This document shows, in pieces, positions 16,939 to 54,024 of a stretch of DNA of 60,866 nucleotides; position 1 is the first letter of the stretch, and every line of letters starts with the position of its first letter. The notes under the pieces were generated by a model, which did no database searches, was not told the origin of the DNA, and saw nothing but the letters and a program-made list of their open reading frames with translations. The translations under genes were made by a program, and so were the position numbers. The stretch comes from Olsenella uli (GTDB lineage: Bacteria; Actinomycetota; Coriobacteriia; Coriobacteriales; Atopobiaceae), in assembly GCF_016900775.1 (NCBI RefSeq), contig NZ_JACJKN010000016.1:1-60866 (forward strand), given 5' to 3'.

Positions 16939-17030
16939 CGGGGGCGACCTGACAAGGGTGACAGGGTCGTTTGTCATGAACCCCTTCATGACAAACGACC
17001 CTGTCACCCTTGTCAGATCGCCCCCCGTCA
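16936..17030. repeat. 95-bp near-perfect palindrome holding both stop codons of convergent genes
   Basis: Core arms 16949-16980 and 16985-17016 are perfectly complementary over 32 bp around a CCCC loop; the outer arms continue to 16936 and 17030 with one base indel and one mismatch. The outermost bases on each side are TGA stops, of the histidine kinase (+) and of dinB (-). The core GACAGGGTCGTTTGTCATG is shared with the palindrome at 52934-53003. It may act as a bidirectional terminator or mRNA-end stabiliser, although there is no T run. Confidence 0.92.
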
Positions 17031-40998: not shown

Positions 40999-43378
40999 GC
41001 TTGCCCTCCACCTTTCTCACGAGGCGCGCGAAGCGCTCGTCCTTCTCGTAGCCCGCGAGCGAGCGGTCGTACATCCAGTTGAAGAACGCGACCGCGAGCA
41101 CGCCCGCGGCGGCGATCACCACACCCATGCTACCCGTCATCCCCACCATCTCGAAGAACGGGGCGAAGACCGTACACCCACCCGCAACAATGGCGGCGAT
41201 CACGGCGAGAAGCGCCGTCCTGAGCGGCGTGAGGGGCTGGGAGATGCGCCACACGAGCGCGATGCCCACGAAGGCGACGAGCACGGTGCAGACCGTGGAT
41301 ATCTCGGCGAAGGAGTGGTCGAGGGCGCGGCCCACGACGAGCTCGGCGAGAAGCGCCGCCACGATGGCGGCCGAGGCCGGGAGCGACCGGGCGAGCACGT
41401 TGGCGAGGAAGCTCCCGCGCACGAGCTCGTGGTTGGGCTCGAGCGCGAGCACGAAGGAGGGGATCCCGATGACGGCCGTGGAGAGCAGCGACATCTGGAT
41501 GGGGATGAAGGGGTAGGGCGGCATGACGATGCACACGAGCGCGAGCACGGCCGTGAAGACGGTCTTGACGAGGAAGAGCGACGCGGAGCGCTGGAGGTTG
41601 TTGATCGAGCGGCGGCCCTCGGCCACGACCTCGGGCATGTGGGCGAAGTCGTTGTCCGCAAGGACGATCTCCGAGACGTTTCTCGCCGCGGCGGAGCCCG
41701 AGGCCATGGCCACCGAGCAGTCGGCCTCGCGCAGGGCCAGCACGTCGTTCACGCCGTCGCCCGTCATGGCCACCGTGCGCCCGCGGCGGTGGAGCGCCCG
41801 CACGAGGTCGCGCTTCTGCTGCGGCGTGACGCGCCCGAAGACGCGCGCCTCGTCGACGGCGGCGTCGAGCTTCTCGGTCGTGTCGAGCGTCGCCGCGTCC
41901 ACGAAGCGCCCCGCATCGGGCACCCCGGCGCGCGCGGCGATGGCCGAGACCGTGCGCGGGTCGTCGCCGGAGATGACCCTGAGCTCGACCCCCTGCTCGA
42001 GGAAGAAGCGCATGGTCTCGGGCGCGGAGGCGCGGATCTCGTCGCGGATGGCCACGCAGCCCATGAGGCGCGGCTCGCCCAGGAGCACGCCCCCCTCGTC
42101 GAAGCCCGGCGCCTCGGCCACCACGAGCACGCGCTCCGTGGCGTCGAAGGCGCGCGCGAGCTCGTCGGCCTCGGCCGCCCGGTCGCGCCCGAGCACGAAG
42201 GCGGCCGCGCCCATCACGAGCGCGCGCCCGTCCGCCGCGACGCAGCCCGAGTACTTGCGCGCCGAGTCGAAGGGGACGGCGCGCGCGGCGGGCGCGGGCG
42301 CGAGGCCGAGCTCGTCGGCGTGGCGCAGCAGGGCGAGCGCGGTCTCGTTGGCGTCGGCGGCGTTGGACGCCGCGATGGCGGCCATGGCGGCCTCGACCTC
42401 GGCCTCGTCGCGGCCGGGCGCGGCGCGCACCGAGGAGACCTCCATCTCGCCGGAGGTGATCGTGCCCGTCTTGTCGAGGCAGAGCGTGTCCACGCGCGCG
42501 AGCGTCTCCACGCAGTAGGCCTGCTGCACGAGGACCAAGCGCCGCCCGAGGCGGAAGGTCGCGATGGCGAGGACCGACGAGGTGAGCAGCACGAGGCCCT
42601 GGGGCACCATGCCGATGACGGCCGCGACCGAGGTGAGGATCGCGTCATCGAGGCTGCCGCCGTCCATGAGAAGCGAGCGAAGGAACAGGCCGAGCCCGAG
42701 CGGCACGAGCGCGGCCGTGCCGAGCCGGATGATGGCGCGCAGGGTCTCCTGGATCTCCGAGCGCACGGCCTTGACGTACTTCGCCTCGGCGTTGATGCGC
42801 GCGGCGTAGCCCTCGGCGCCCACGCGCGTGACGCGCGCGACGAGGCTGCCCGCGTCGACGAAGCTCCCCGAGAGCAGCTCGTCGCCGGGGCCCTTGGAGA
42901 CGGGCTTGGCCTCGCCGGTGAGCAGGCTCTCGTTCATGGAGACGTTGCCCTCCACGATGACGCCGTCTGCGGGGACCTGGTCGCCGTGCGCAAGCCGCAC
43001 GAGGTCGTCGGCGACGAGCTCGGAGGGGCTCAGCGCCCGCTCGCCCGCGGCGCGGATGACGGTGACCTCCTTCTGCGTGAGGATGGTGAGCCTGTCCACC
43101 ATGCGCTTGGCGCGGACCTCCTGGACGACGCCGATGACGAGGTTCGCCCCCACGACGCACATGAAGAGGAGGTTGCGGTACTGCCCCGTGACGAGCACGA
43201 GCAGCGCGAGCGCGAGGTTCACGCCGTTGAAGAGGGTGAGCGCGTGCTCCGCCACGATCTGGCGCACGGACTTGGTCTTGACGTCGGTGTTCGCGTTGGT
43301 GAGGCCCGCCGCCACGCGCTCGGCGACCTCGGCGTCGGTGAGCCCGCGCGGCTCGGCGTTCTTCTCGTCCAGCGTCAT
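40982..43378 (-). CDS. P-type cation-transporting ATPase (CtpE-like)
   Basis: 798-residue P-type ATPase. Actuator TGEAKPVSKG (TGEA at 154-157), phosphorylation site DKTGT with Asp302, hinge MTGDGVNDVLALREADCSVAMASGSAAARN, about ten membrane helices. The M4 motif reads GMVPQGLVLLTSS rather than PEGL, and there is no N-terminal heavy-metal domain; both fit the actinobacterial CtpE group, linked to calcium uptake in mycobacteria. Ion specificity here is inference. The ATG at 43378 is chosen; an ATG ten codons earlier (43408) is possible. Confidence 0.9.
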   Translation of the reverse strand: MTLDEKNAEPRGLTDAEVAERVAAGLTNANTDVKTKSVRQIVAEHALTLFNGVNLALALLVLVTGQYRNLLFMCVVGANLVIGVVQEVRAKRMVDRLTILTQKEVTVIRAAGERALSPSELVADDLVRLAHGDQVPADGVIVEGNVSMNESLLTGEAKPVSKGPGDELLSGSFVDAGSLVARVTRVGAEGYAARINAEAKYVKAVRSEIQETLRAIIRLGTAALVPLGLGLFLRSLLMDGGSLDDAILTSVAAVIGMVPQGLVLLTSSVLAIATFRLGRRLVLVQQAYCVETLARVDTLCLDKTGTITSGEMEVSSVRAAPGRDEAEVEAAMAAIAASNAADANETALALLRHADELGLAPAPAARAVPFDSARKYSGCVAADGRALVMGAAAFVLGRDRAAEADELARAFDATERVLVVAEAPGFDEGGVLLGEPRLMGCVAIRDEIRASAPETMRFFLEQGVELRVISGDDPRTVSAIAARAGVPDAGRFVDAATLDTTEKLDAAVDEARVFGRVTPQQKRDLVRALHRRGRTVAMTGDGVNDVLALREADCSVAMASGSAAARNVSEIVLADNDFAHMPEVVAEGRRSINNLQRSASLFLVKTVFTAVLALVCIVMPPYPFIPIQMSLLSTAVIGIPSFVLALEPNHELVRGSFLANVLARSLPASAAIVAALLAELVVGRALDHSFAEISTVCTVLVAFVGIALVWRISQPLTPLRTALLAVIAAIVAGGCTVFAPFFEMVGMTGSMGVVIAAAGVLAVAFFNWMYDRSLAGYEKDERFARLVRKVEGKHGSNE

Positions 43379-43473
43379 CGCCCCCCTCTCGTCTCTGGGA
43401 GCGTCCATTGTGCCACGCGGCCGCGACGCATGCGCAAACCTTACGAAAAAGAGAGACGCCCCGGCGGCGCACG

Positions 43474-43501
43474 AAAAAGCCCGGCCCTCGCGGGGCCGGG
43501 C
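43474..43501 (-). terminator. Terminator after tRNA-Arg
   Basis: Nine-bp stem GCCCGGCCC (43479-43487 with 43493-43501), five-base loop, then TTTTT on the minus strand (A run 43474-43478). Confidence 0.88.
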
Positions 43502-43510
43502 GACGGTGCG

Positions 43511-43587
43511 TGGTGCGCCCAGGGGGATTCGAACCCACGACCTTCTGCTCCGGAGGCAGACGCTCTCATCCACTGAGCTATGGGCGC
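43511..43587 (-). tRNA. tRNA-Arg (anticodon CCG)
   Basis: 77 bases including an encoded CCA (43513-43511). Acceptor GCGCCCA/TGGGCGC, D stem GCTC/GAGC, anticodon stem TCTGC/GCAGA around loop CTCCGGA (anticodon CCG, reading CGG), and T arm with TTCGAATC. The gene is followed by a terminator ten bases later. Confidence 0.95.
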
Positions 43588-43714
43588 GTGCGAGGGGCAG
43601 TATAGCTCAATCGCGCCGCCGCCACAAACGGGGGCGCCCGACGCCGTAACCTCGCGGTCACACGCCCGTGGTATCATCGCGCAGCACTTCACGCACCCAA
43701 CCCAGGAGAAGCGA

Positions 43715-44740
43715 ATGATCGCAGTAGTCAGGGACAGCGCCACGACCGAGCAGCTCGACCACTTCGTGAGGTGGATCGAGGACCGCGGCTTCAAGACGAA
43801 CGTCTCCCAGGGAGACAACGAGACGCTGGTCGGCATCATCGGCGACACCACCCGCATCGACCCGTTCCTGCTCGAGAGCATGGACATCGTCGAGCGCGTC
43901 CAGCGCGTTTCCGAGCCCTTCAAGCTCGCCAACCGCAAGTTCCACCCCGAGGACACCGTCGTGGACTGCGGCCACGGGGTGCTCGTGGGCGGCGGCAACT
44001 TTCAGGTGATCGCCGGGCCGTGCTCGGTCGAGGGCGACAACCTCATCGAGATAGCCCGCGCCGTGCGCGCGGCCGGCGCCACCATGCTGCGCGGCGGCGC
44101 CTTCAAGCCCCGGACCTCCCCCTACACCTCCCAGGGCATGGGCGAGCGCGGGCTCGACCTGCTCATGGAGGCGGGCGCCGAGCTCGACATGCCCGTCGTG
44201 ACGGAGATCATGGACCCGCGCGACGTGGGGCTCTTCCTCGACAAGGGGGTGGACGTCCTGCAGGTGGGCGCGAGAAACGCGCAGAACTTCCCGCTGCTGC
44301 GCGAGGTCGGTAGGGCCGGCGTGCCGGTCCTGCTCAAGCGCGGCATGTCCGAGACCATCGACGAGTTCGTCATGAGCGCCGAGTACGTCATGAGCGAGGG
44401 CAACGGGTCGGTCATGCTCTGCGAGCGCGGCATCCGCACCTTCGAGACGCGCACGAGAAACACCTTCGACGTGAACGCCGTCCCGGTGCTGCACCACCTC
44501 ACCCACCTGCCCGTCGTCGGCGACCCGAGCCACGCCACCGGCTACACGCGCTACGTGCGCCCGGCCGCCTACGCGGCGGTGGCCGCGGGCGCCGACGCGC
44601 TCGAGATCGAGGTGCACGACTGCCCCGCCAAGGCCTGGTCGGACGGCGCCCAGGCGCTCACGCCCGAGCAGTTCGCCGACGCCATGCGGCGCATCTCGCT
44701 CATCCGCGAGGCCGTCACCGCCGACGTCGAGGGGGCCTAG
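43715..44740 (+). CDS. aroF: DAHP synthase, type I-beta with N-terminal regulatory domain
   Basis: Condenses PEP and erythrose-4-phosphate, the entry step of the shikimate pathway. 341 residues: a ~75-residue ferredoxin-like N-terminal domain (MIAVVRDSATTEQLDHFVRWIEDRGFKTNVSQGDNETLVGIIGD), as in Thermotoga-type DAHP synthases where it mediates feedback control, then a TIM barrel with GPCSVE (101-106), LRGGAFKPRTSPYTSQG, LLKRGMSETIDEF and GDPSHATG. AGGAG lies upstream of the ATG. First gene of the aromatic amino-acid operon. Confidence 0.96.
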   Translation: MIAVVRDSATTEQLDHFVRWIEDRGFKTNVSQGDNETLVGIIGDTTRIDPFLLESMDIVERVQRVSEPFKLANRKFHPEDTVVDCGHGVLVGGGNFQVIAGPCSVEGDNLIEIARAVRAAGATMLRGGAFKPRTSPYTSQGMGERGLDLLMEAGAELDMPVVTEIMDPRDVGLFLDKGVDVLQVGARNAQNFPLLREVGRAGVPVLLKRGMSETIDEFVMSAEYVMSEGNGSVMLCERGIRTFETRTRNTFDVNAVPVLHHLTHLPVVGDPSHATGYTRYVRPAAYAAVAAGADALEIEVHDCPAKAWSDGAQALTPEQFADAMRRISLIREAVTADVEGA

Positions 44741-44741
44741 G

Positions 44742-45617
44742 GTGGCCGCCCGAGCGCTCGCGCCCGAGGTCGTCCCGGGGCGCATCGGCATCGTGGGGCT
44801 CGGCCTCATGGGCGGCTCGTTCGCCAAGGCCTTCGCCGCGGCCGGCGTCGAGGCGTACGCCTGGAACCGGACGCGCTCCACGCTCGAGCTCGCGATGATA
44901 GAGACCGTCGCCGGCGAGCTCACCGACGAGGTGGTGCCCACCTGCGAGCTCGTGATCCTCGCGGGCTACCCCGCCTCGGCCGTCTCCTGGCTCGAGGAGA
45001 AGGCCCCGCTCCTCTCCGCCGGCGCCATCGTGATCGACGCGGTGGGCGTCAAGCGCGTCATCTGCGAGCGCTGCGAGAAGATCGCGGAGGGCCGCCCCTT
45101 CACCTTCGTCGGCTGCCACCCCATGGCCGGGACGCAGTACTCCGGCTTCGCGCACGCGCGCGCCACGATGTTCAGGGGCGCCCCGATGGTCGTCGTGCCG
45201 CCCGAGATGGACGACTTCGAGCGCGCCGACGTCCTCGAGCGCCTGAAGGAGCTCCTCGAGCCGTGCGGCTTCGGCAGCTTCACGCTCGCCACGCCCGCCG
45301 TGCACGACCGCGTCATCGCCTTCACCTCGCAGCTCGCCCACGTGGTCTCCAACGCCTACGTCAAGAGCCCCACGGCGCGCGCGCACCGCGGCTTCTCGGC
45401 GGGCTCCTACAAGGACCTCACGCGCGTCGCGCGCCTGAACGCCCCCATGTGGACGGAGCTCTTCCTCGACAACGCCGACTACCTCTCGGAGGAGATCGGG
45501 ACCATCATCGGGAGCCTCCAGGAGTACAAGGACGCCATCGACGAGCGCGACGCAGGGCGGCTCGAGTCCCTCCTCGCGGAGGGCGACAAGATCAAGCGGG
45601 AGGTGGACGGCCGATGA
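44742..45617 (+). CDS. tyrA: Prephenate dehydrogenase
   Basis: Oxidative decarboxylation of prephenate to 4-hydroxyphenylpyruvate for tyrosine. 291 residues, GTG start one base after the aroF stop. NAD-binding GLGLMGGSFAKAF at 19-31, GCHPMAGTQYSGF active-site segment, and TSQLAHVVSNAYV in the helical C-terminal domain. No ACT domain, so feedback by tyrosine is not obvious. Confidence 0.93.
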   Translation: MAARALAPEVVPGRIGIVGLGLMGGSFAKAFAAAGVEAYAWNRTRSTLELAMIETVAGELTDEVVPTCELVILAGYPASAVSWLEEKAPLLSAGAIVIDAVGVKRVICERCEKIAEGRPFTFVGCHPMAGTQYSGFAHARATMFRGAPMVVVPPEMDDFERADVLERLKELLEPCGFGSFTLATPAVHDRVIAFTSQLAHVVSNAYVKSPTARAHRGFSAGSYKDLTRVARLNAPMWTELFLDNADYLSEEIGTIIGSLQEYKDAIDERDAGRLESLLAEGDKIKREVDGR

Positions 45618-46744
45618 GCACGCGACCAACGAGCGCGGGCGAGAAGGGCGCGGCGGGCGCGTTCCGCACGGTCCCCGTGAGCGCCGCCTCCGCCTCCTAC
45701 GACGTGCTCGTGGGCGCGGGCGTGCTCGACGGCCTCGGCGCCGTCGCGCGGCGGGCCACGGCCTCGGCGCGCGCCTGCGTCATCACCGAGACCACCGTGG
45801 GGCCGCTCTACGCCGACGCCGCCGAGGCGTCGCTCGCCGCCGCGGGCATGGACGTGGCGGCGCGCCTCACCTTCCCCGCGGGGGAGGCCAGCAAGAACCT
45901 CGCCACCCTGGGCGAGCTCCTCGAGGGGCTCGCCGAGCGCGGGCTCACGCGCGACGACTGCGTCGTGGCGCTCGGGGGCGGCGTCACGGGCGACATGGGG
46001 GGCATGGCCGCGGCGCTCTACCTGCGCGGCGTGCGCGTCGTGCAGGTCCCGACGTCGCTCCTCGCGATGGTCGACTCCTCCGTCGGCGGCAAGACCGCCG
46101 TCGACCTGCGCGCGGGCAAGAACCTCGCCGGCGCCTTCTGGCAGCCCGCGGCCGTCGTGGCCGACGTGCGCTGCCTCGCGACCGTCTCGCCCGAGCTCTT
46201 CCGCGACTCGTGCGGAGAGGTGATCAAGCACGCCGTCCTCGCCGACGCCGCGCTACTCGACGAGCTGACGCGCGCGCCGCTCACCGCCGCGGCCGCGGAC
46301 GAAGCGCGCCTCGTCCGCGTGGTGGCGAGAAACGTCGAGATCAAGCGCGACGTCGTGAACGCCGACGAGCGCGAGCGGGGCCTCAGGCAGACGCTCAACC
46401 TCGGCCACACCGTCGGGCACGCCATCGAGTCCGCGAGCGGGTTTGCCCTCGGCCACGGCTCCTGCGTCGCGGCGGGGCTCTGCATCGTCGCGCGCGCCGC
46501 CGCGCGGATGGGCTGGTGCGCGGCCGAGACGAGCGAGCGCATCGTCGCGTGCGTCGAGGCGCACGGCCTGCCCACGGCAACCGACGTCCCCACGGACGAG
46601 CTCATGCGCTACGCGGGGCACGACAAGAAGCGCCACGGCGACTCGGTGAACCTCGTCGTGCCGCTCGAGCCGGGCCGCGTCGAGCTGCGCCGCGTGGGCA
46701 TGGACGAGCTCAGGCGCCTCATCGAGCTCGGAAGGGGGGCGTGA
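45614..46744 (+). CDS. aroB: 3-dehydroquinate synthase
   Basis: Second step of the shikimate pathway, NAD- and metal-dependent. 376 residues. Motifs: FPAGEASKNLATLGELLEGL, VALGGGVTGDMGGMAAALYLRGV, VPTSLLAMVDSSVGGKTAVDLRAGKNLAGAFWQP, and the metal ligands in EVIKHA, NLGHTVGHAIE and H of GHDKKRHGD. ATGA overlap with tyrA. Confidence 0.97.
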   Translation: MSTRPTSAGEKGAAGAFRTVPVSAASASYDVLVGAGVLDGLGAVARRATASARACVITETTVGPLYADAAEASLAAAGMDVAARLTFPAGEASKNLATLGELLEGLAERGLTRDDCVVALGGGVTGDMGGMAAALYLRGVRVVQVPTSLLAMVDSSVGGKTAVDLRAGKNLAGAFWQPAAVVADVRCLATVSPELFRDSCGEVIKHAVLADAALLDELTRAPLTAAAADEARLVRVVARNVEIKRDVVNADERERGLRQTLNLGHTVGHAIESASGFALGHGSCVAAGLCIVARAAARMGWCAAETSERIVACVEAHGLPTATDVPTDELMRYAGHDKKRHGDSVNLVVPLEPGRVELRRVGMDELRRLIELGRGA

Positions 46745-48066
46745 GCGTGGACGTGACCGTCGGGCCCGGGCCCCTCTCCGGCGAGCTCGCCGCCCCCTCC
46801 TCCAAGTCCGAGGCGCACCGCCTGCTCGTCTGCTCGGCCTTCGCGCCGGGCGTGACCGACATCGCCTGCGCCACCTCCTCCCAGGACATCGACGCCACCG
46901 CCTCGTGCCTCGAGGCCCTCGGCGCCCGCATCGCGCGCACGCGCGCGGGCTTCCGCGTCCGGCCCGTCCCGGGCACCTCGGCGACGGACAACCTCCCCGA
47001 GGCCCGCCGCGGCGCCCTGCTCGACTGCGGGGAGTCCGGCTCCACGCTGCGCTTCCTCCTGCCCGTCGTGGCCGCGCTCGGCTGCGACGCGCGCCTCACC
47101 GGGCACGGCCGGCTCCCCGAGCGGCCGCTCTCCCCGCTCTACGAGGAGCTCGTCGCCCACGGCGCGCGCCTCTCCCCGCAGGGGGCCTTCCCCCTCTCCG
47201 TGGGCGGCAGGCTCGAGGCGGGGCGCTTCTCCCTGCCGGGCGACGTCTCGTCGCAGTTCGTGACCGGCCTGCTCCTCGCCGCGCCGCTCCTGCGCGCGCC
47301 CGTGGAGGTCGTCGTGGGTGAGCCCGTCGAGTCGAGGCCCTACATCGACATCACCGTCTCTGCCCTCAGAGCCTTTGGCGTCGAGGTCTCCGAGGGCCGC
47401 GCGCGGACGCCGGGCGGCCGGCAGGCGCGCTCCTACGTCGTCTGCGCCCCGGGCGGCTACGCCACCCCCGGTTCCGTGCGCGTGGGCGGCGACTGGTCCA
47501 ACGCCGCGTTCTGGCTCGCGGCGGGCGCCATCGGCGAGGGGGGCGTCGCCGTGCGCGGGCTCGACCTGGCGAGCGCCCAGGGCGACCGCCAGGTCCTCGC
47601 CGCGCTCGCCCTGCTCGGCGCGCGGGTGCTCCGCCGCGCGGACGGGGCGGCGTGCGAGCGCGACCTCCTGCGCGGCCGCGAGCTCGACGTGAGCAGCTGC
47701 CCCGACCTCGTGCCGCCGCTCGCCGCGGTGGCCGCCGTGGCCGAGGGCACCACGCGGATACGCGGCGCGGCGCGCCTGCGCATCAAGGAGTCCGACCGCC
47801 TCGAGACCGTCTCGGCCGCGATCCGCGCGGTCGGCGGCCGCGCCGAGACCACCCCCGACGGCCTCGTCATCGAGGGGGCGCCCGAGCTCGCCGGCGGCAC
47901 CGTCGACGCAGCGAACGACCACCGCATCGCCATGATGGCCGCCGTCCTCGCCTCGCGCTGCTCCGGCCCCGTGACCATCCTCGGGGCGGAGTGCGTGGCC
48001 AAGTCCTATCCCGCCTTCTTCGAGGACCTTGCGGCCCTCGGCGGCATCGTCAGAAAGGAGCGGTGA
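46741..48066 (+). CDS. aroA: 3-phosphoshikimate 1-carboxyvinyltransferase (EPSP synthase)
   Basis: Joins PEP to shikimate-3-phosphate. 441 residues, from a GTG in a GTGA overlap with aroB. Signatures: PSSKSEAHRLLVCSAFA, LDCGESGSTLRFLLPVVAALG (usually GNSGTxxR), GDVSSQFVTGLL, RIKESDRLETV and ANDHRIAMMAAVL. Confidence 0.96.
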   Translation: MSVDVTVGPGPLSGELAAPSSKSEAHRLLVCSAFAPGVTDIACATSSQDIDATASCLEALGARIARTRAGFRVRPVPGTSATDNLPEARRGALLDCGESGSTLRFLLPVVAALGCDARLTGHGRLPERPLSPLYEELVAHGARLSPQGAFPLSVGGRLEAGRFSLPGDVSSQFVTGLLLAAPLLRAPVEVVVGEPVESRPYIDITVSALRAFGVEVSEGRARTPGGRQARSYVVCAPGGYATPGSVRVGGDWSNAAFWLAAGAIGEGGVAVRGLDLASAQGDRQVLAALALLGARVLRRADGAACERDLLRGRELDVSSCPDLVPPLAAVAAVAEGTTRIRGAARLRIKESDRLETVSAAIRAVGGRAETTPDGLVIEGAPELAGGTVDAANDHRIAMMAAVLASRCSGPVTILGAECVAKSYPAFFEDLAALGGIVRKER

Positions 48067-49181
48067 TGCCCTCCTCGTTTGGCACCGCGCTCAGGGTCAC
48101 CGTGTTCGGCCAGTCCCACTCCCCCGCCGTGGGGTGCGTCGTGGAGGGGCTGCCGGCGGGCATGCCCGTGGACGCCGAGGCGCTCGCCGCGTTCGTGGCG
48201 CGCCGCGCGCCCGGCAACGACCCCTGGGGGACGCCCCGCAAGGAGCCCGACGCCCCCCGCATCGTCTCCGGCCTCAACCCGGACGGCAGGACCTGCGGCG
48301 CGCCGCTCGCCGCCGTCATCGAGAACACCAACACGCGCTCGCGCGACTACAACAACCTCCTCGCCGTGCCGCGCCCCGGCCACGCCGACTTCACGGCCTG
48401 GGCCAAGTGGCACGGCGAGCAGGACGTGCCGGGCGGCGGCCACTTCTCGGGCCGCCTCACCGGGCCGCTCTGCGTGGCGGGCGGGCTCGCCCTCCAGTGG
48501 CTGGCCACCCGGGGCGTGGACGTGCGCGCCCACGTGGCCGAGCTCGCGGGCATCGCCGACGAGCCCTTCTCGGCGCTCGACAACTCCCCCGCCTCGCTCG
48601 ACCTGCTCGCCCGGCAGATGGCGGCCGTCGCCGACGGCCGGCGCATGCCGACCATAGACGGGGCCGCCGGCGAGCGCATGGTCGAGGCCGTCACCGCCGC
48701 CCGCGCGCGCAAGGACACCCTCGGCGGCGTCGTGGAGTGCGTCGCCACGGGGCTTCCCGCCGGCGCCGGCTCTCCGATGTTCGACGGCGTGGAGAACGTC
48801 ATGGCGCGCGCCCTCTTCGGCATCCCCGCAGTGAAGGGCGTCGAGTTCGGGCGCGGCTTCGGCGCGGCCCGGCTCACCGGCACGCAGAACAACGACCCCT
48901 ACGAGGTGCGCGACGGCGCCTGCGTGCCCGCGACCAACAACGCGGGCGGCATCCTCGGCGGCATCACCACGGGCGCGCCCGTGCTCGTGCGCTGCGCCTT
49001 CAAGCCCATCTCGAGCGTCATGGTGGAGCAGAACTCGGTGGACCTCACCACGATGGAGCCCGCCCGCCTCAAGGTGCACGGCCGCCACGACACCACGGCC
49101 GTCATCCGCGCCGTCCCGGTGGTCGAGGCGGTCTGCGCCCTCGCGCTCGCCGACGTCCTGCTCGCCTGGCCCGCCGAGTGA
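48066..49181 (+). CDS. aroC: Chorismate synthase
   Basis: Makes chorismate from EPSP using reduced FMN. 371 residues. VTVFGQSHSPAVGCVVEGLPAGMPVD replaces the canonical GESHG opening, RPGHADFTAWAKWHGEQDVPGGGHFSGRLT the second, and NAGGILGGITTGAPV with KPISSVMVEQNSVDL the C-terminal signature; this is the divergent group found in many anaerobic Gram-positives. The ATG shares one base with the aroA stop. Confidence 0.96.
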   Translation: MPSSFGTALRVTVFGQSHSPAVGCVVEGLPAGMPVDAEALAAFVARRAPGNDPWGTPRKEPDAPRIVSGLNPDGRTCGAPLAAVIENTNTRSRDYNNLLAVPRPGHADFTAWAKWHGEQDVPGGGHFSGRLTGPLCVAGGLALQWLATRGVDVRAHVAELAGIADEPFSALDNSPASLDLLARQMAAVADGRRMPTIDGAAGERMVEAVTAARARKDTLGGVVECVATGLPAGAGSPMFDGVENVMARALFGIPAVKGVEFGRGFGAARLTGTQNNDPYEVRDGACVPATNNAGGILGGITTGAPVLVRCAFKPISSVMVEQNSVDLTTMEPARLKVHGRHDTTAVIRAVPVVEAVCALALADVLLAWPAE

Positions 49182-49244
49182 CGCACCCCGAGAGACACGC
49201 CGCCCGAGGGGCGCTCCCCCGGCGGGCACGAAGAAAGGACGCAC

Positions 49245-50396
49245 ATGCCCGAGCTCTCTGACCTACGACGTGAAATCGACCGCATCGACGGGGAGATCTT
49301 CCGGCTCTTCTCGGAGCGCGCCGGCGTGTCCGAGGAGGTCGCCGCCTACAAGCGCGAGCACGGCATGCGCGTCTTCGACCCCGCGCGCGAGCGCGCCAAG
49401 GTGGCCGACGCCGCCGAGCGCGCGCCCAAGGACCTCGCCACCTACGCGCAGGTGCTCATGGAGCTCCTCATGGAGGCCTCCCGCGCCCGCCAGCACGCGC
49501 TGCTCGCCGACTCCGCCGACGACGGCACCCTCGCGCTCGTGGAGCGGGCGCGCGCCGCGACGCCGGAGCTCTTCCCCCGCTCCGCGCGCGTCTCGTGCCA
49601 GGGCGTCGAGGGGGCCTACTCCCAGATAGCCGCCGAGCGCATCTTCCGCCGCCCCGCGATCGCCTACGCCGCCACGTTCGACGGGGTCTTCCGCGCCGTC
49701 GAGCAGGGCGCCGCGGACTACGGCGTCATCCCCGTGGAGAACTCCACGGCGGGCACCGTGAACCAGGTCTTCGACCTCATGATGGAGCACTCCTTCTACG
49801 TGGTGCGCACCACGCGCGTGAAGGTCGACCACAACCTCCTCGCGCTGCCCGGCGCGAGCCTCTCCGGCATCCGGGAGATCTTGAGCCACGAGCAGGCCAT
49901 CAACCAGTGCGCCGAGTTCCTCTCGGGCCTGCCGGACGTGCGCGTGCGCGTGTGCGAGAACACGGCCGCCGCGGCCAAGGGGGTCGCCGAGTCCGGCCGG
50001 CTCGACGTGGCGGCGCTCTCGTCGCTGCCCTGCGCGGACCTCTACGGGCTCGACGTGCTCTCCGCCGACGTCCAGGACCGCGACAACAACTACACGCGCT
50101 TCGCGTGCATCTCCAAGGACCTCGAGGTCTACCCCGGCGCGGACCGGACCTCGCTCATGATCGTGCTGCCGCACGAGCCGGGCGCCCTCTACAAGCTGCT
50201 CGCCAAGTTCTACGCGCTCGACATCAACCTCCTCAAGCTCGAGAGCCGCCCCATCCCCGAGCGCGACTTCGAGTTCATGTTCTACTTCGACGTCGAGTGC
50301 CCCGTCGCGGCGCCCGAGTTCTCGTCGCTCCTCGCCACGCTCTCCCCGCTCTGCCAGGAGTTCCGCTATCTCGGAAGCTACGCGGAGGTGGTCTAG
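49245..50396 (+). CDS. pheA: Bifunctional chorismate mutase/prephenate dehydratase
   Basis: 383-residue P-protein: AroQ-class chorismate mutase (about 1-90, LRREIDRIDGEIFRLFSERAGVSEEVAAYK), prephenate dehydratase (about 113-290, CQGVEGAYSQIAAERIF, GVIPVENSTAGTVNQVFDLM, DNNYTRFACI) and a C-terminal ACT domain (about 300-383, SLMIVLPHEPGALYKLLAKFYALDINLLKLESRPIPERDFEFMFYFD) for feedback by phenylalanine. It supplies the only chorismate mutase in the operon, so TyrA presumably depends on it. 63 bases after aroC, AAAGGA upstream. Confidence 0.96.
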   Translation: MPELSDLRREIDRIDGEIFRLFSERAGVSEEVAAYKREHGMRVFDPARERAKVADAAERAPKDLATYAQVLMELLMEASRARQHALLADSADDGTLALVERARAATPELFPRSARVSCQGVEGAYSQIAAERIFRRPAIAYAATFDGVFRAVEQGAADYGVIPVENSTAGTVNQVFDLMMEHSFYVVRTTRVKVDHNLLALPGASLSGIREILSHEQAINQCAEFLSGLPDVRVRVCENTAAAAKGVAESGRLDVAALSSLPCADLYGLDVLSADVQDRDNNYTRFACISKDLEVYPGADRTSLMIVLPHEPGALYKLLAKFYALDINLLKLESRPIPERDFEFMFYFDVECPVAAPEFSSLLATLSPLCQEFRYLGSYAEVV

Positions 50397-51685
50397 TGCC
50401 CGGCGAGAAGAACCTCGGGGGGGCGCCCTTCGGGCTGCTCGGCCGCACGCTCGGCCACAGCTGGTCGCGCGAGATCCACGCGCGGCTGGGCTCCGCGCCC
50501 TACGCGCTCCTCGAGCTCGAGCCCGAGGAGGTCGCGCCCTTCGTCCGCGAGGGCGCCTGGCGCGGCCTCAACGTGACCATCCCCTACAAGCGCGAGGCGG
50601 CCCTCCTCGCCGACGTGCGCTCGGCCGCCGTCGAGCGCATCGGCACCGCCAACACCCTCGTGCGCGCCGACGACGGGCGCATCGTCGCGGAGAACACGGA
50701 CGTGCTCGGCTTCGCGTGGATGCTCGAGCGCTTCTGCCGCGAGCGCCTCGGCGCCTCGGCGCACGACGCCCTCGCGGGCGAGAAGGCCCTCGTCCTCGGC
50801 AGCGGCGGCGCGAGCCAGGCCGTCGTCGACGCGCTCGCGCACACCGTCGGCGCCCGGCCCGTCGTCATCTCGCGTACGGGGGAGGAGACCTACGCCACGC
50901 TCGTCGAGCGCCACGCGGACGCCGTCCTTCTCGTCAACGCCACGCCCGTGGGGATGTTCCCGCGCTGCCCCGCCTCCCCCCTCCCCGAGGCGGACCTCGC
51001 CGCGCTCGCGGGGCTCAGGGGCGTGCTCGACGTGGTCTACAACCCGGAGCGCACCGGGCTCTGCCTCGCGGCGGAGCGACTCGGCCTGCCGTGCGAGTCG
51101 GGCCTCGCCATGCTCGTCGCCCAGGCGCTCTACGCGAGCGAGCTCTTCCAGGGGCGCGCGCTGGACGACGCGCTCGCCCTCGAGGTAGAGCGCGAGCTCC
51201 GCTCCCAGACGCGCAACGTCGTGCTCATCGGCATGCCGGGCGCCGGCAAGACGAGCTGCGGCCGCGCGCTCGCCCGCGCGCTCGACCGGCCCTTCGTCGA
51301 CATGGACGAGGTCGTGGCCACCGAGCGCGGCCGGGGCGCGGCCCAGATCATCCGCGAGGACGGCGAGGCGGCCTTCCGCGCCCTGGAGACCGAGGCCACC
51401 GGCCGCTACGGCGCGCGCTCGGGGCTCGTCATCGCCTGCGGCGGGGGCGTCGTCACGCGCCCGGAGAACTACGACCTGCTGCGCCAGAACGGCACGATCG
51501 TCCTTCTCGACCGCCCGCTCGACCAGCTCGGCACCGAGGGCCGCCCCGTGTCCCAGGCGCGCGGGGTCGAGGCGCTCGCCGCCGAGCGCATGCCGCGCTA
51601 CCGCGCGTGGGCGGACCTCGTCGTGGCGTGCACGGGCACGCCCCAGGGGGACGCCGCGCGCATCCGGGAGCTGCTGGGGCTCTGA
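50396..51685 (+). CDS. aroE-aroK: Fused shikimate dehydrogenase-shikimate kinase
   Basis: 429 residues carrying two pathway enzymes in one chain. AroE (about 10-268): GRTLGHSWSREIH, NVTIPYK with catalytic Lys65, ENTD (Asp102), GSGGASQAVVDAL (nucleotide loop 135-140), NATPVGMFP. AroK (about 273-429): P-loop GMPGAGKT at 279-286, VDMDEVVATERGRGAAQIIREDGEAAFRALETEA, ACGGGVVTRPENYDLL, and RPLDQL. A single uninterrupted frame with a short Arg/Glu linker. GTG start sharing one base with the pheA stop. It catalyses two consecutive-family steps around shikimate. Confidence 0.95.
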   Translation: MPGEKNLGGAPFGLLGRTLGHSWSREIHARLGSAPYALLELEPEEVAPFVREGAWRGLNVTIPYKREAALLADVRSAAVERIGTANTLVRADDGRIVAENTDVLGFAWMLERFCRERLGASAHDALAGEKALVLGSGGASQAVVDALAHTVGARPVVISRTGEETYATLVERHADAVLLVNATPVGMFPRCPASPLPEADLAALAGLRGVLDVVYNPERTGLCLAAERLGLPCESGLAMLVAQALYASELFQGRALDDALALEVERELRSQTRNVVLIGMPGAGKTSCGRALARALDRPFVDMDEVVATERGRGAAQIIREDGEAAFRALETEATGRYGARSGLVIACGGGVVTRPENYDLLRQNGTIVLLDRPLDQLGTEGRPVSQARGVEALAAERMPRYRAWADLVVACTGTPQGDAARIRELLGL

Positions 51686-51694
51686 GGCTCCCGG

Positions 51695-51753
51695 GCATGC
51701 CCCCACGCACGCCTTCGCCCCCGTGGCGAGAAGAACCGTGCGCGGGGGCATGC
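51695..51753. repeat. Inverted repeat between aroE-aroK and aroQ
   Basis: Seventeen-base arms 51695-51711 and 51737-51753 (one mismatch, G-T on RNA) with a 25-base spacer, starting ten bases after the fusion gene. No T run follows, so it may be a partial terminator or mRNA-end hairpin. The remainder of the 277-bp gap holds a weak TATACT at 51866-51871 as a possible -10 for aroQ. Confidence 0.55.
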
Positions 51754-51962
51754 TCGCCCACTCGCCCCGCGCGTCCCGCTGCGCCGACTTGTGACGTTTT
51801 GCCGGAGGCTTGACCGCCCGCCGCGCCGCTCGGCGGGATGGGGGTGCGCGACGTGGCGTCACACGTATACTAGCCACTCGAAATGACAGAAGACGCAGTC
51901 GTATGACGGTGAGTGGAGACGGGGCTCTGACTCGCGATTCGACGACGGGAAAGGATCGCGGA

Positions 51963-52922
51963 GTGGACAGGCACCAGATCGCAGAAGAGGTCCTCGCGGC
52001 TGTGGGCGGGGGCGGCAACGTCACGGCCAACGACATCTGCATGACGCGTCTCAGACTCGTGACCGAGGACCCCACGCTCGTCGACACCGACAAGCTCTCC
52101 GCCGCCCGCGGCGTGCTCGGCTTCGTGCGGAGCGGCGACAATGGCATCGAGGTCGTCTTTGGGCCCGGCAAGGCCGAGGCCGTCCACGACGAGATCGCCC
52201 GCATCACCGGCGTCGACACGAGCGACGTCGAACCGGAGCCCGCGTCGACGCCGCAGAGGAGCTCGATACGGGTCCACATCACCCCGAGGCGCCTCTGCCC
52301 CGAGCCTGCGGTCCCCGAGGCCGCCAAGGCGGAGGGCGACGGGCCGTCCGCGGTGGACGAGCTCGTCAGCCTGCTGAGCGAGATCGAGCCTGCGGACGCC
52401 GAGCTTGACACCGCGACGATCGACGAGCCCCTCGACGAGCCCGACTCGCCGGAGGAGGACGACGAGGCGCCCGGCCCGCGGCGGGCGCGCGTGCTCGTGA
52501 TCAACGGCCCCAACATCAACATGCTCGGCATCCGCGAGCCCGACATCTATGGACACGACACCTACCAGGAGCTCCTCAGGATCTGCCAGGCAGCCGCGCG
52601 AGACGCCGGCTTCGACGACTGCACCTGCTTCCAGTCCAACCACGAGGGCGACCTCATCGATGCCATCCAGGACGCCTACGGCAGCTACGACGGCATCGTC
52701 ATCAACCCGGGCGCCTACACCCACACCTCGATCGCCATCCTCGACGCGGCCAAGGCGGTGGGGCTGCCCATGGTCGAGGTGCACATCTCCAAGCTCGACG
52801 AGCGCGAGGACTTCCGCCAGGTCTCCTACATCCGCGCCGCCTGCTTCGAGACCATCACCGGGCTCGGGCTGGACGGCTACCGCAAGGCGCTGCACGACCT
52901 CGCCGAGCACCTCGGCCTCTAG
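51963..52922 (+). CDS. aroQ: PTS EIIB-like domain fused to type II 3-dehydroquinate dehydratase
   Basis: 319 residues in one frame. Residues 1-85 (DRHQIAEEVLAAVGGGGNVTANDICMTRLRLVTEDPTLVDTDKLSAARGVLGFV...IEVVFGPGKAEAVHDEI) match the glucose-type PTS EIIB fold, including the CxTRLR phosphorylation motif with Cys26. A Pro/Glu/Asp-rich linker (about 86-176) leads to AroQ at 177-319: VINGPNINMLGIREPDIYG (catalytic Tyr196), SNHEGDLID, NPGAYTHTSIAI, VEVHIS and REDFRQVS. AroQ removes water from dehydroquinate. The usual SN after EVH is SK. The GTG at 51963 has AGGA seven bases upstream; ATG 51903 would add 20 residues. It completes the operon's set of seven shikimate enzymes. Confidence 0.88.
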   Translation: MDRHQIAEEVLAAVGGGGNVTANDICMTRLRLVTEDPTLVDTDKLSAARGVLGFVRSGDNGIEVVFGPGKAEAVHDEIARITGVDTSDVEPEPASTPQRSSIRVHITPRRLCPEPAVPEAAKAEGDGPSAVDELVSLLSEIEPADAELDTATIDEPLDEPDSPEEDDEAPGPRRARVLVINGPNINMLGIREPDIYGHDTYQELLRICQAAARDAGFDDCTCFQSNHEGDLIDAIQDAYGSYDGIVINPGAYTHTSIAILDAAKAVGLPMVEVHISKLDEREDFRQVSYIRAACFETITGLGLDGYRKALHDLAEHLGL

Positions 52923-52933
52923 GCCCGATAAAG

Positions 52934-53003
52934 CTTGACAAAGGTGTCAGGGTCGTTTGTCATGAAATCGTTCATGACAAACGACCCTGACACCTTTGTC
53001 AAG
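52934..53003. repeat. 33-bp-arm palindrome between aroQ and a small membrane protein gene
   Basis: Perfectly complementary arms 52934-52966 and 52971-53003 around loop ATCG. Shares GTTTGTCATGAA and AGGGTCG with the palindrome 16936-17030, but substitutions in one arm are matched in the other. The SD (AAGGAG) of the next gene begins directly at its right edge. Confidence 0.93.
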
Positions 53004-53015
53004 AAGGAGCCCGTC

Positions 53016-53411
53016 ATGCGCAGGAAGCCAGGCCTCGTTCTTCTCGCCATCTATCTCTGCGCGTGGGCCGCGTCGGTCGCGGCCATCTGGACGGCCGACT
53101 CCGTCGAGCTCATGGGCGCCATCATCCTCTGGCTCTACCTCGTCATGCCCGCCGTGACCCTGGGCACGTCGGTCGCCGCCGCGCTGCTCGGCGCCTACGG
53201 GAGGGCGGCGTGGCTCATGGCGCCCGCCTGCGGCGCGGGCCTCATGCTCGTCCCCTACCTCACGACGTCGCTCGCCAACACGCTGGCCACCGGAAACCTC
53301 CACGCACCCGACCTCGGCACCTTCGCCGTCGGGACGGCGATCTCGCTCGTGGGGCTCCTTGCGGGGCGCGCGATCGGGCGCCTGAGGCGGCGTGCCGGCG
53401 GGGACGACTGA
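53016..53411 (+). CDS. Small membrane protein, unknown function
   Basis: 131 residues, about four hydrophobic helices (LVLLAIYLCAWAASVAAIW, LMGAIILWLYLVMPAVTLGTSVAAALLGAYG, WLMAPACGAGLMLVPYLTTSLA, LGTFAVGTAISLVGLLAGRAIG), short basic C terminus. The ATG at 53016 has AAGGAG with good spacing; the frame runs back through the palindrome but that part is not coding-like. No family recognised. Converges on the formyl-THF cyclo-ligase gene 13 bases away. Confidence 0.75.
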   Translation: MRRKPGLVLLAIYLCAWAASVAAIWTADSVELMGAIILWLYLVMPAVTLGTSVAAALLGAYGRAAWLMAPACGAGLMLVPYLTTSLANTLATGNLHAPDLGTFAVGTAISLVGLLAGRAIGRLRRRAGGDD

Positions 53412-53424
53412 CGGCCGCGGGAGG

Positions 53425-54024
53425 CTAGCGGGGGCGGCAGCTCCAGACGGAGCCCTCCGTGGCGATGAAGTCCACCGGCACGTCGTGCCCGTCCGTCGGG
53501 AGCGGGTTGGAGGAGAGCATCGTCGTGCGCGCGAGGCCGATCTTGTCGCCGGGATAGAACGCGAGGAAGCGGTCGTAGTAGCCGCCGCCGTAGCCCACGC
53601 GGTAGCCGGCGCCGTCGAAGACGAGGCCCGGGACGAGGCAGACCGAGCCGACCATCTCGGGGACACGCACCACGGGCGCGTCAGCCGCCGGCTCGAGGAT
53701 GCGCATCGTGCGCGGGACGAGCTCGTCGAGCGATGCGATCTTTCGGAAGTCCATCGAGCGCGCCTCGAGGTCGACGCGCGGCACGGCCACACGGACGCCC
53801 TCCGCGAGCAGGGACGCGATGATCTCGCGCGTGTCCACCTCGGCCCCGCGCGATACGTAGGCGAGCACGAGGGGGGCCTCCGAGAAGAGCGGGAACGCCG
53901 CGAGGGCGCTTCTGATGGAGGCGTCGCTCTCGAGCCGCGTGCGCGCCGGGATGGCGCGCCGGGCCATGAGGTAGTTGCTCCTGAGCGAGCTCTTGTCGGC
54001 ATCCGTCCCGTATGAGCTCGCCAT
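53425..54024 (-). CDS. 5-formyltetrahydrofolate cyclo-ligase
   Basis: Converts 5-formyl-THF to methenyl-THF using ATP, rescuing folate. 199 residues. Motifs: SLRSNYLMARRAIP near the start, VLAYVSRGAEVDTREII, and the ATP/folate loop VGYGGGYYDRFLAFY. The ATG at 54024 has GAGAGG upstream; an ATG 11 codons earlier (54057) is weaker. Confidence 0.93.
   Translation of the reverse strand: MASSYGTDADKSSLRSNYLMARRAIPARTRLESDASIRSALAAFPLFSEAPLVLAYVSRGAEVDTREIIASLLAEGVRVAVPRVDLEARSMDFRKIASLDELVPRTMRILEPAADAPVVRVPEMVGSVCLVPGLVFDGAGYRVGYGGGYYDRFLAFYPGDKIGLARTTMLSSNPLPTDGHDVPVDFIATEGSVWSCRPR

What the first reader, a model, noticed from the sequence alone, without database searches (positions are those of the whole stretch)
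51963..52922. PTS EIIB-like domain fused to the shikimate enzyme AroQ
One uninterrupted frame joins a glucose-type EIIB module, with the phosphorylatable Cys in a CxTRLR motif, to a complete type II dehydroquinase through a ~90-residue acidic/proline linker. EIIB domains normally pass phosphate from EIIA to an incoming sugar; no EIIC or EIIA is nearby. The fusion could tie aromatic synthesis to PEP/sugar status: the PTS and DAHP synthase compete for PEP, and this gene closes the shikimate operon. Alternatively the EIIB fold may have been reused as a binding or oligomerisation module. I know of no described system of this kind.
Basis: partly seen in the sequence, partly recalled or inferred. 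Interest (0 to 1): 0.78.

Follow-up and report, generated by a model that had tools for sequence, protein, structure and literature searches.

The report
Sugar-uptake protein domain on shikimate enzyme
A family of bacteria carries, at the end of its aromatic amino acid genes, a piece of the sugar-uptake phosphorylation machinery joined to a shikimate enzyme; some relatives have lost the enzyme but kept this piece, which suggests that it is a signal protein linking sugar uptake to aromatic synthesis.

Summary
The fusion is real: window 51963-52922 encodes a glucose-class EIIB domain (PF00367 over cut-off), a ~90-residue linker and a type II dehydroquinase in one frame. It is a family trait, inferred Atopobiaceae: of 140 genomes 127 have AroQ; in 124 I read one fused frame with Cys26, the other three are broken by contig ends or Ns. 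In other families of the order AroQ was seen without EIIB. Natural decay is decisive. In genus g31 AroQ has lost R191, Y196, H254 and R281 in 15 of 15 sequences, while EIIB keeps C26, R29 and R31; type I dehydroquinase is in 15 of 16 genomes. In five g35 genomes AroQ is gone but EIIB plus linker remains, 145-162 aa, after aroK. So EIIB plus linker has a role that needs no dehydroquinase activity. In 5 of 28 genomes it is the only PF00367 EIIB, though EIIA and EI persist. Best reading: a PTS phospho-acceptor reporting sugar/PEP state to the shikimate pathway. Phosphorylation and target are inferred. I saw no published description.

The parts
51963..52922 (+). EIIB-linker-AroQ fusion gene, 319 aa
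   Evidence: conserved start in 107 of 120 loci
51963..52214 (+). glucose-class EIIB domain, residues 1-84
   Evidence: PF00367, longer NCBIfam EIIB matches, model and Foldseek
52038..52055 (+). C26-M-T-R-L-R phospho-acceptor motif
   Evidence: C26, T28, R29, L30 and R31 in 120 of 120 aligned fusions
52149..52151 (+). Glu63, where 27 of 27 transporter EIIBs compared have Gln; Glu in 119 of 120 aligned fusions
52215..52487 (+). acidic/proline linker, residues 85-175
   Evidence: low confidence in the models; much of it kept in the five proteins that lack AroQ
52263..52286 (+). linker motif 1, residues 101-108 (SIRVHITP; V104 and I106 conserved)
   Evidence: V104 in 79% and I106 in 81% of 125 sequences
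52347..52379 (+). linker motif 2, residues 129-139, predicted helix; L134 conserved
   Evidence: L134 in 122 of 125 sequences; helix in both models
52488..52919 (+). type II 3-dehydroquinate dehydratase domain, residues 176-319, catalytic residues present
   Evidence: PF01220, TIGR01088; mapping on the C. glutamicum enzyme
43580..51685 (+). upstream shikimate gene run: DAHP synthase, prephenate dehydrogenase, AroB, AroA, AroC, chorismate mutase/prephenate dehydratase, AroE-AroK frame
   Evidence: Pfam; same order in most relatives with enough flank, rearranged in some

Best explanation
An EIIB-type phospho-acceptor protein dedicated to the shikimate pathway ('aro-EIIB'). EI, HPr and a glucose-class EIIA pass phosphate to Cys26, so that its phosphorylation state reports PTS sugar flow and the PEP supply, PEP also being a substrate of DAHP synthase and AroA. 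In one of the two states EIIB plus linker motifs bind a shikimate-pathway target, most likely an enzyme of the same locus such as DAHP synthase, and adjust flux. In most of the family AroQ is both an active enzyme and the carrier of this module; in one clade (g31 and g35), where type I dehydroquinase occurs, the AroQ part has decayed or been deleted in most genomes while EIIB plus linker remains. Shown: fusion, family-wide conservation, invariant Cys/Arg core, retention where AroQ has lost catalytic residues or is absent, constant aro locus. Inferred: phosphorylation by EIIA, the target, the direction of control.
For: Fused frame in 124 of 127 AroQ-bearing genomes of 140, the other three cut by assembly. 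C26, R29 and R31 in 120 of 120 aligned. Against 27 transporter EIIBs of the same family the GGxxN and CxTR.R core is shared (the CxTR.R part was the selection rule for those 27) while L52, G61, E63 and P68 set the aro-EIIBs apart. g31: R191, Y196, H254 and R281 gone in 15 of 15, EIIB C26/R29/R31/E63 kept in 15 of 15; AroD in 15 of 16; chorismate synthase in 16 of 16. Five g35 genomes keep EIIB plus linker alone in the same locus (three of three scanned match PF00367 only). EIIB is more alike than AroQ only in the decaying groups: 0.70 v 0.53 in g31 and 0.67 v 0.58 in a g35 subset, against 0.76 v 0.82, 0.84 v 0.85 and 0.45 v 0.67 in the three other sets; pN/pS reverses likewise. Sole PF00367 EIIB in 5 of 28 genomes that retain PF00358 EIIA and EI; in one of these, G032, a free-standing EIIA lies near ptsI. 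Four genomes in which chorismate synthase was not found also gave no aro-EIIB hit.
Against: No phosphorylation data. EI (PF05524) was not found in 14 of 140 genomes, 4 of them among the 101 good ones; all 14 are drafts of 40 or more contigs and at most 91% completeness, but 5 of them are g31 genomes that carry the fusion. EIIA (PF00358) was not found in 6 of 140; one, G105 of g31, is 98% complete and carries the fusion. HPr was not tested. The Gln found in all 27 transporter EIIBs is Glu here, so chemistry could differ. EIIB evolves faster than AroQ in most of the family. EIIA could persist for other roles. No target is identified. g31 AroQ keeps N184, N226 and N248 in 15 of 15 and H274 in 5 of 15, so the decayed domain may still have a binding role. 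G126 has type I dehydroquinase yet an intact AroQ; G139, with AroQ deleted, gave no AroD hit (73% complete), and G122 is 83% complete.
Confidence: 0.55

Rival explanations
1. Cis control: phosphorylation of EIIB switches the AroQ domain of the same chain, which is why the two are fused.
For: Every unbroken AroQ frame read in the family is fused; type II dehydroquinases form large oligomers in which a domain could gate neighbours (recalled).
Against: EIIB stays intact where AroQ has lost catalytic residues (15 of 15 in g31) or is deleted (5 g35 genomes). An Atopobium rimae protein with the theoretical mass of an AroQ domain alone (15.5 kDa) was active, kcat 9.06 per s, Km 401 uM (PMC4314829, first part of the results section read). 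Cis control could still exist beside a trans role.
Confidence: 0.12
2. Binding module only: the EIIB fold was reused to bind a partner or oligomerise, with no phosphate transfer.
For: Gln of 27 of 27 transporter EIIBs replaced by Glu, and other subfamily-specific positions; conserved linker motifs; EIIA or EI not found in some genomes with the fusion, one of them 98% complete. In E. coli EIIB is solved bound to Mlc (title of 3bp8).
Against: C26, T28, R29 and R31 do not vary in 120 aligned fusions, which a mere scaffold would not need; five genomes keep EIIA with no other PF00367 EIIB.
Confidence: 0.2
3. Transport in trans: the EIIB serves a glucose-class EIIC that lacks its own EIIB.
For: PF02378 EIIC matches outnumber PF00367 EIIB matches in most of the 28 genomes.
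Against: The four EIICs without PF00367 that I read (G000, G070, G004, G090) look like lactose/cellobiose-type proteins, two of them with a different C-terminal EIIB (classes from recall). In G089 and G032 the best EIIC matches are weak (2.4e-19, 5.8e-21). The constant place after aroK is not explained. The match table was cut, so not every EIIC was placed.
Confidence: 0.06
4. Relic: EIIB plus linker persists by chance after a neutral fusion.
For: EIIB evolves faster than AroQ in much of the family.
Against: Motif intact in all 124 fused frames read; purifying selection; AroQ was lost, probably more than once, with EIIB left each time.
Confidence: 0.04

Closest known systems
Glucose-class EIIB domains of PTS permeases (PF00367; E. 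coli IIBGlc, sucrose and N-acetylmuramate IIBC)
   Same: Fold, CxTRLR motif, GGxxN motif, length
   Different: No EIIC in the chain, none found in the window; Glu where 27 of 27 transporters have Gln; sits at the shikimate locus; acidic linker
Type II dehydroquinase AroQ (PF01220, TIGR01088; C. glutamicum 8idr)
   Same: Whole domain and catalytic residues
   Different: Carries an N-terminal EIIB; catalytically decayed or absent in part of the family
E. coli IIBGlc bound to the repressor Mlc (3bp8)
   Same: Glucose-class EIIB used as a signal output (title; passage of PMC11393339)
   Different: There the EIIB belongs to the permease and acts on a transcription repressor
PTS nitrogen branch (EINtr-NPr-EIIANtr)
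   Same: PTS phosphate used for regulation, not transport (start of abstract of PMC4635465 in a search listing)
   Different: Its named parts include an EIIA but no EIIB; not a shikimate-locus protein
PRK14905 (NF011497), triosephosphate isomerase joined to a PTS IIB
   Same: A named model in which an EIIB is joined to a metabolic enzyme; its EIIB part matches residues 5-81 weakly (E 0.0017)
   Different: Glycolytic enzyme, EIIB at the C-terminal end; its members were not examined here

Membership tests
glucose-class PTS EIIB (PF00367) | Pfam model over curated cut-off | tested here: met
   38.1 bits against 27; three EIIB-only relatives 35.0-39.3 bits
glucose-class PTS EIIB (PF00367) | Active-site Cys in CxTRLR | tested here: met
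   120 of 120 aligned, four more by motif
glucose-class PTS EIIB (PF00367) | EIIB fold | tested here: met
glucose-class PTS EIIB (PF00367) | Gln at the position of residue 63, as in 27 of 27 transporter EIIBs compared | tested here: not met
   Glu in 119 of 120, Asp in one; a sign of a distinct subfamily, not known to me to define the family
glucose-class PTS EIIB (PF00367) | Joined to or beside an EIIC | tested here: not met
   aro genes as neighbours
glucose-class PTS EIIB (PF00367) | Accepts phosphate from EIIA | not testable with these tools
   needs a phosphotransfer assay
type II dehydroquinase | Family models over cut-off | tested here: met
type II dehydroquinase | N12, R19, Y24, N75, H81, H101, R108, R112 (C. 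glutamicum numbering, passages of PMC10772564) | tested here: met
   window protein has N184, R191, Y196, N248, H254, H274, R281, R285; R191, Y196, H254 and R281 not met in 15 of 15 g31 relatives
type II dehydroquinase | Dehydratase activity and oligomer | not tested
   needs an assay
PTS-controlled transcription regulators (PRD type) | DNA- or RNA-binding domain | tested here: not met
   Pfam finds only EIIB and dehydroquinase

The most novel reading that the evidence does not exclude
A PTS branch whose output is an anabolic pathway: a soluble EIIB with its own effector linker, unlinked from sugar transport, adjusts shikimate flux in trans, with AroQ as a dispensable carrier that has become a pseudoenzyme or has been dropped.
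Probability: 0.5. Interest if true: 0.87.

Novelty: new variant of a known kind. Interest (0 to 1): 0.76.

Why it matters
PTS signalling is known mainly for sugar genes, carbon repression and the nitrogen branch. An EIIB dedicated to the shikimate locus would be a direct line from PEP/sugar status to aromatic synthesis, where PEP is a shared substrate. Nature has supplied a separation-of-function series (active fusion, decayed fusion, EIIB plus linker alone), so the role of EIIB can be tested with small soluble proteins without AroQ in the way.

Tried and rejected
A late start that leaves EIIB untranslated: rejected. Standalone AroQ in the family: none seen; 13 of 140 genomes lack PF01220, of which five have EIIB plus linker alone, four gave no chorismate synthase (G038, G039, G060, G138), two have contigs that end before aroK (G083, G041), and two (G040, G112; 57% and 68% complete) were not followed. 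Viral contigs gave nothing. Phage and plasmid records: 14 and 435 records match, none over 80% of the query; the rows listed (10 and 8) cover AroQ only. Rfam over 42500-53500: one tRNA, no other element. PHROGs: nothing. Promoter scan: none found in 51600-53100. Papers: the rows listed by searches (not every hit was listed or opened; open-licence library only) showed no EIIB-dehydroquinase fusion. A 2014 paper on domain architectures of shikimate enzymes (Zhi et al., Mol Phylogenet Evol) was seen only as a citation and may mention it. The role of IIBGlc arginines was sought in PMC11393339 (passages) without an answer, so it is left out of the argument.

Naming the family rests on contig lengths: G053 has a contig of 1,543,805 bp, the genome size given for Atopobium parvulum, and G066 one of 2,051,896 bp, that of Olsenella uli (passages of PMC3035223 and PMC3035265; contig lengths); that both belong to Atopobiaceae is recalled.

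Full report
Observation. The frame 51963-52922 (+) encodes 319 residues. Residues 8-41 match PTS_EIIB over the curated cut-off and 176-313 match type II dehydroquinase; NCBIfam EIIB-containing models extend the match to about residues 3-90. AlphaFold gives a confident EIIB fold and a low-confidence linker with one helix near 129-139. The six Foldseek matches at E up to 0.001 are all PTS chains; 1o2f, 3bp3 and 3bp8 fit at TM 0.80-0.82 by target. In the window, tblastn with two EIIA and four PTS-locus frames, one of them probably a wrong-strand frame, hit only this EIIB; the genome has three further PF00367 EIIBs. Upstream lies a shikimate run from DAHP synthase to an AroE-AroK frame; 277 bases separate aroK from the fusion.

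Distribution. In the genus, 31 of 31 genomes match. In the family, 127 of 140 genomes match at E up to 1e-20. I read 122 of these loci first: 120 have EIIB and AroQ in one frame; four more followed, so 124 of 127. The other three are G028 (pieces on two contigs), G067 (Ns and two frames) and G111 (contig begins at AroQ); EIIB pieces with the Cys exist for the first two. None of the other 13 genomes has PF01220. Outside the family but in the order, the AroQ matches printed start at query residue 149 or later (the table was cut), and 109 outside loci, some with short flanks, held no stretch like aro-EIIB at E up to 0.01. The family is inferred to be Atopobiaceae from two contig lengths and recall.

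Conservation. In 120 aligned fusions G15, G16, N19, C26, T28, R29, L30, R31 and L52 do not vary. The search accepted six letters at the Cys place and demanded TRLR; a frame without it would have been listed as lacking the motif, and only the two assembly-broken family loci were. Against 27 transporter EIIBs (32 loci, less five that are aro-EIIBs; picked by a CxTR.R motif, some nearly identical) G15, G16 and N19 are shared, while L52, R57 (Ser in the window protein), G58, G61, E63, F66 and P68 set the aro-EIIBs apart; residue 63 is Gln in 27 of 27 transporters and Glu in 119 of 120 aro-EIIBs. The start codon lies at the same place in 107 of 120.

Decay of AroQ, not of EIIB. In the C. glutamicum enzyme, alanine in place of N12, R19, Y24, N75, E99, H101, R108, H81 or R112 abolishes or nearly abolishes activity (PMC10772564, passages). 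Mapped by alignment, R191 (R19), Y196 (Y24), H254 (H81) and R281 (R108) are replaced or gapped in 15 of 15 g31 sequences; H274 (H101) stays in 5 and R285 (R112) in 1, while N184, N226 and N248 stay in 15. C26, R29, R31 and E63 are kept in 15 of 15. Two g31 AroQ domains scanned still match PF01220. Type I dehydroquinase was found in 15 of 16 g31 genomes and chorismate synthase in 16 of 16. The gene still follows aroK in g31, next to it in most loci, about 3 kb away in two (L121, L124).

EIIB alone. Five g35 genomes (G122, G131, G135, G137, G139) have no PF01220 but, between aroK and the 5-FTHF cyclo-ligase gene, a protein of 145-162 aa that is EIIB plus linker, with CATRLR, a stop codon and no Ns; three of three scanned match PF00367 alone. 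Four of the five have type I dehydroquinase; G139 (73% complete) gave none. Of the other 13 g35 genomes, eight have all twelve residues checked (G123-G128, G134, G136; G126 also has AroD), four have changed catalytic residues (G129, G130, G132, G133) and G138 has neither AroQ nor chorismate synthase. AroD was not sought in G123-G125, G127, G128, G130, G132-G134 and G136. In a tree of 102 loci from six shikimate proteins g31 and g35 form one clade (0.995); G122 falls apart from the other four deletions, but branches between them have low support, so two deletions are likely, not certain.

Selection. Mean pairwise identity of EIIB against AroQ: g31 0.697 v 0.525; a g35 subset of five (G126, G129, G130, G132, G133) 0.668 v 0.582; seven other g35 0.757 v 0.822; g1 0.840 v 0.853; 63 others 0.448 v 0.667. 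pN/pS of EIIB against AroQ: g31 0.32 v 0.48, the g35 subset 0.36 v 0.48, g1 0.21 v 0.22, four further groups AroQ lower (synonymous differences are high in several groups). So constraint on AroQ is relaxed in the clade with type I enzymes, and EIIB stays constrained. Elsewhere EIIB is as fast or the faster half.

PTS context. EI was found in 126 of 140 and EIIA in 134 of 140 genomes; HPr was not tested. The 14 without EI are drafts of 40 or more contigs, at most 91% complete, five of them in g31. Of the six without EIIA, G105 (g31, 98% complete) carries the fusion, which speaks against a need for EIIA unless the assembly lacks it. In 5 of 28 nearly complete genomes (G004, G032, G087, G089, G090) the fusion is the only PF00367 match, while EIIA matches number 2, 2, 2, 1 and 1. 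In G032 one EIIA is a free 155-residue protein two genes after ptsI. Where the other EIIAs of these five lie was not seen. Free EIIA proteins of 170-191 aa occur in G042, G051, G052 and G053. The four EIICs without PF00367 that I read are of lactose/cellobiose type by recall, so a partner EIIC is not evident.

Linker. V104, I106 and L134 stand out in 125 aligned EIIB-linker sequences (79%, 81%, 98%), and like stretches persist in the EIIB-only proteins. I read them as short binding motifs; this is inference.

Mechanism. Transfer from EIIA to the Cys is the established chemistry of this family and its core residues are intact; that it happens here is inferred. That the output concerns the shikimate pathway rests on the constant locus, on retention with the pathway in the absence of AroQ, and on the lack of a hit in four genomes without detected chorismate synthase, only one of them at least 90% complete. 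DAHP synthase as target is a guess guided by the shared use of PEP. An Atopobium rimae protein of AroQ size (15.5 kDa) was active in a published survey (PMC4314829, first part of the results section); if that species carries the fusion, as five of five g15 genomes do, EIIB is not needed for catalysis. I could not tell which of my genomes, if any, is A. rimae, and internal starts in the g15 genes near that size give 14.8-15.1 or 16.0 kDa rather than 15.5.

Verdict. The fusion is real, family-wide and constrained; EIIB plus linker has a role separable from dehydroquinase activity. It is a new variant of PTS signalling modules, with phosphorylation and target still to be shown.

Noticed in passing
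window 52937-53000 and 16951-17014: An inverted repeat with arms of at least 26 bases lies just after the fusion gene and again near 17 kb (two mismatches per arm there); four arm matches, none in 100 shuffles. Perhaps a terminator or REP-like element.
   Followed up: partly
window 49595-51685: Shikimate dehydrogenase N-terminal and shikimate kinase domains lie in one 696-aa frame, so AroE and AroK may also be fused.
   Followed up: no
L191, L192, L193 (G126, G104, G098): The three type I dehydroquinase genes read lie outside the aro locus; neighbours with Pfam hits were DUF1295 and an ECF transporter component.
   Followed up: partly
window 43580-44740: DAHP synthase carries an N-terminal ferredoxin-like domain, PF18152, a possible place of control.
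   Followed up: no
L121, L124 (G097, G102): About 3 kb more lies between aroK and the fusion gene than in relatives.
   Followed up: no
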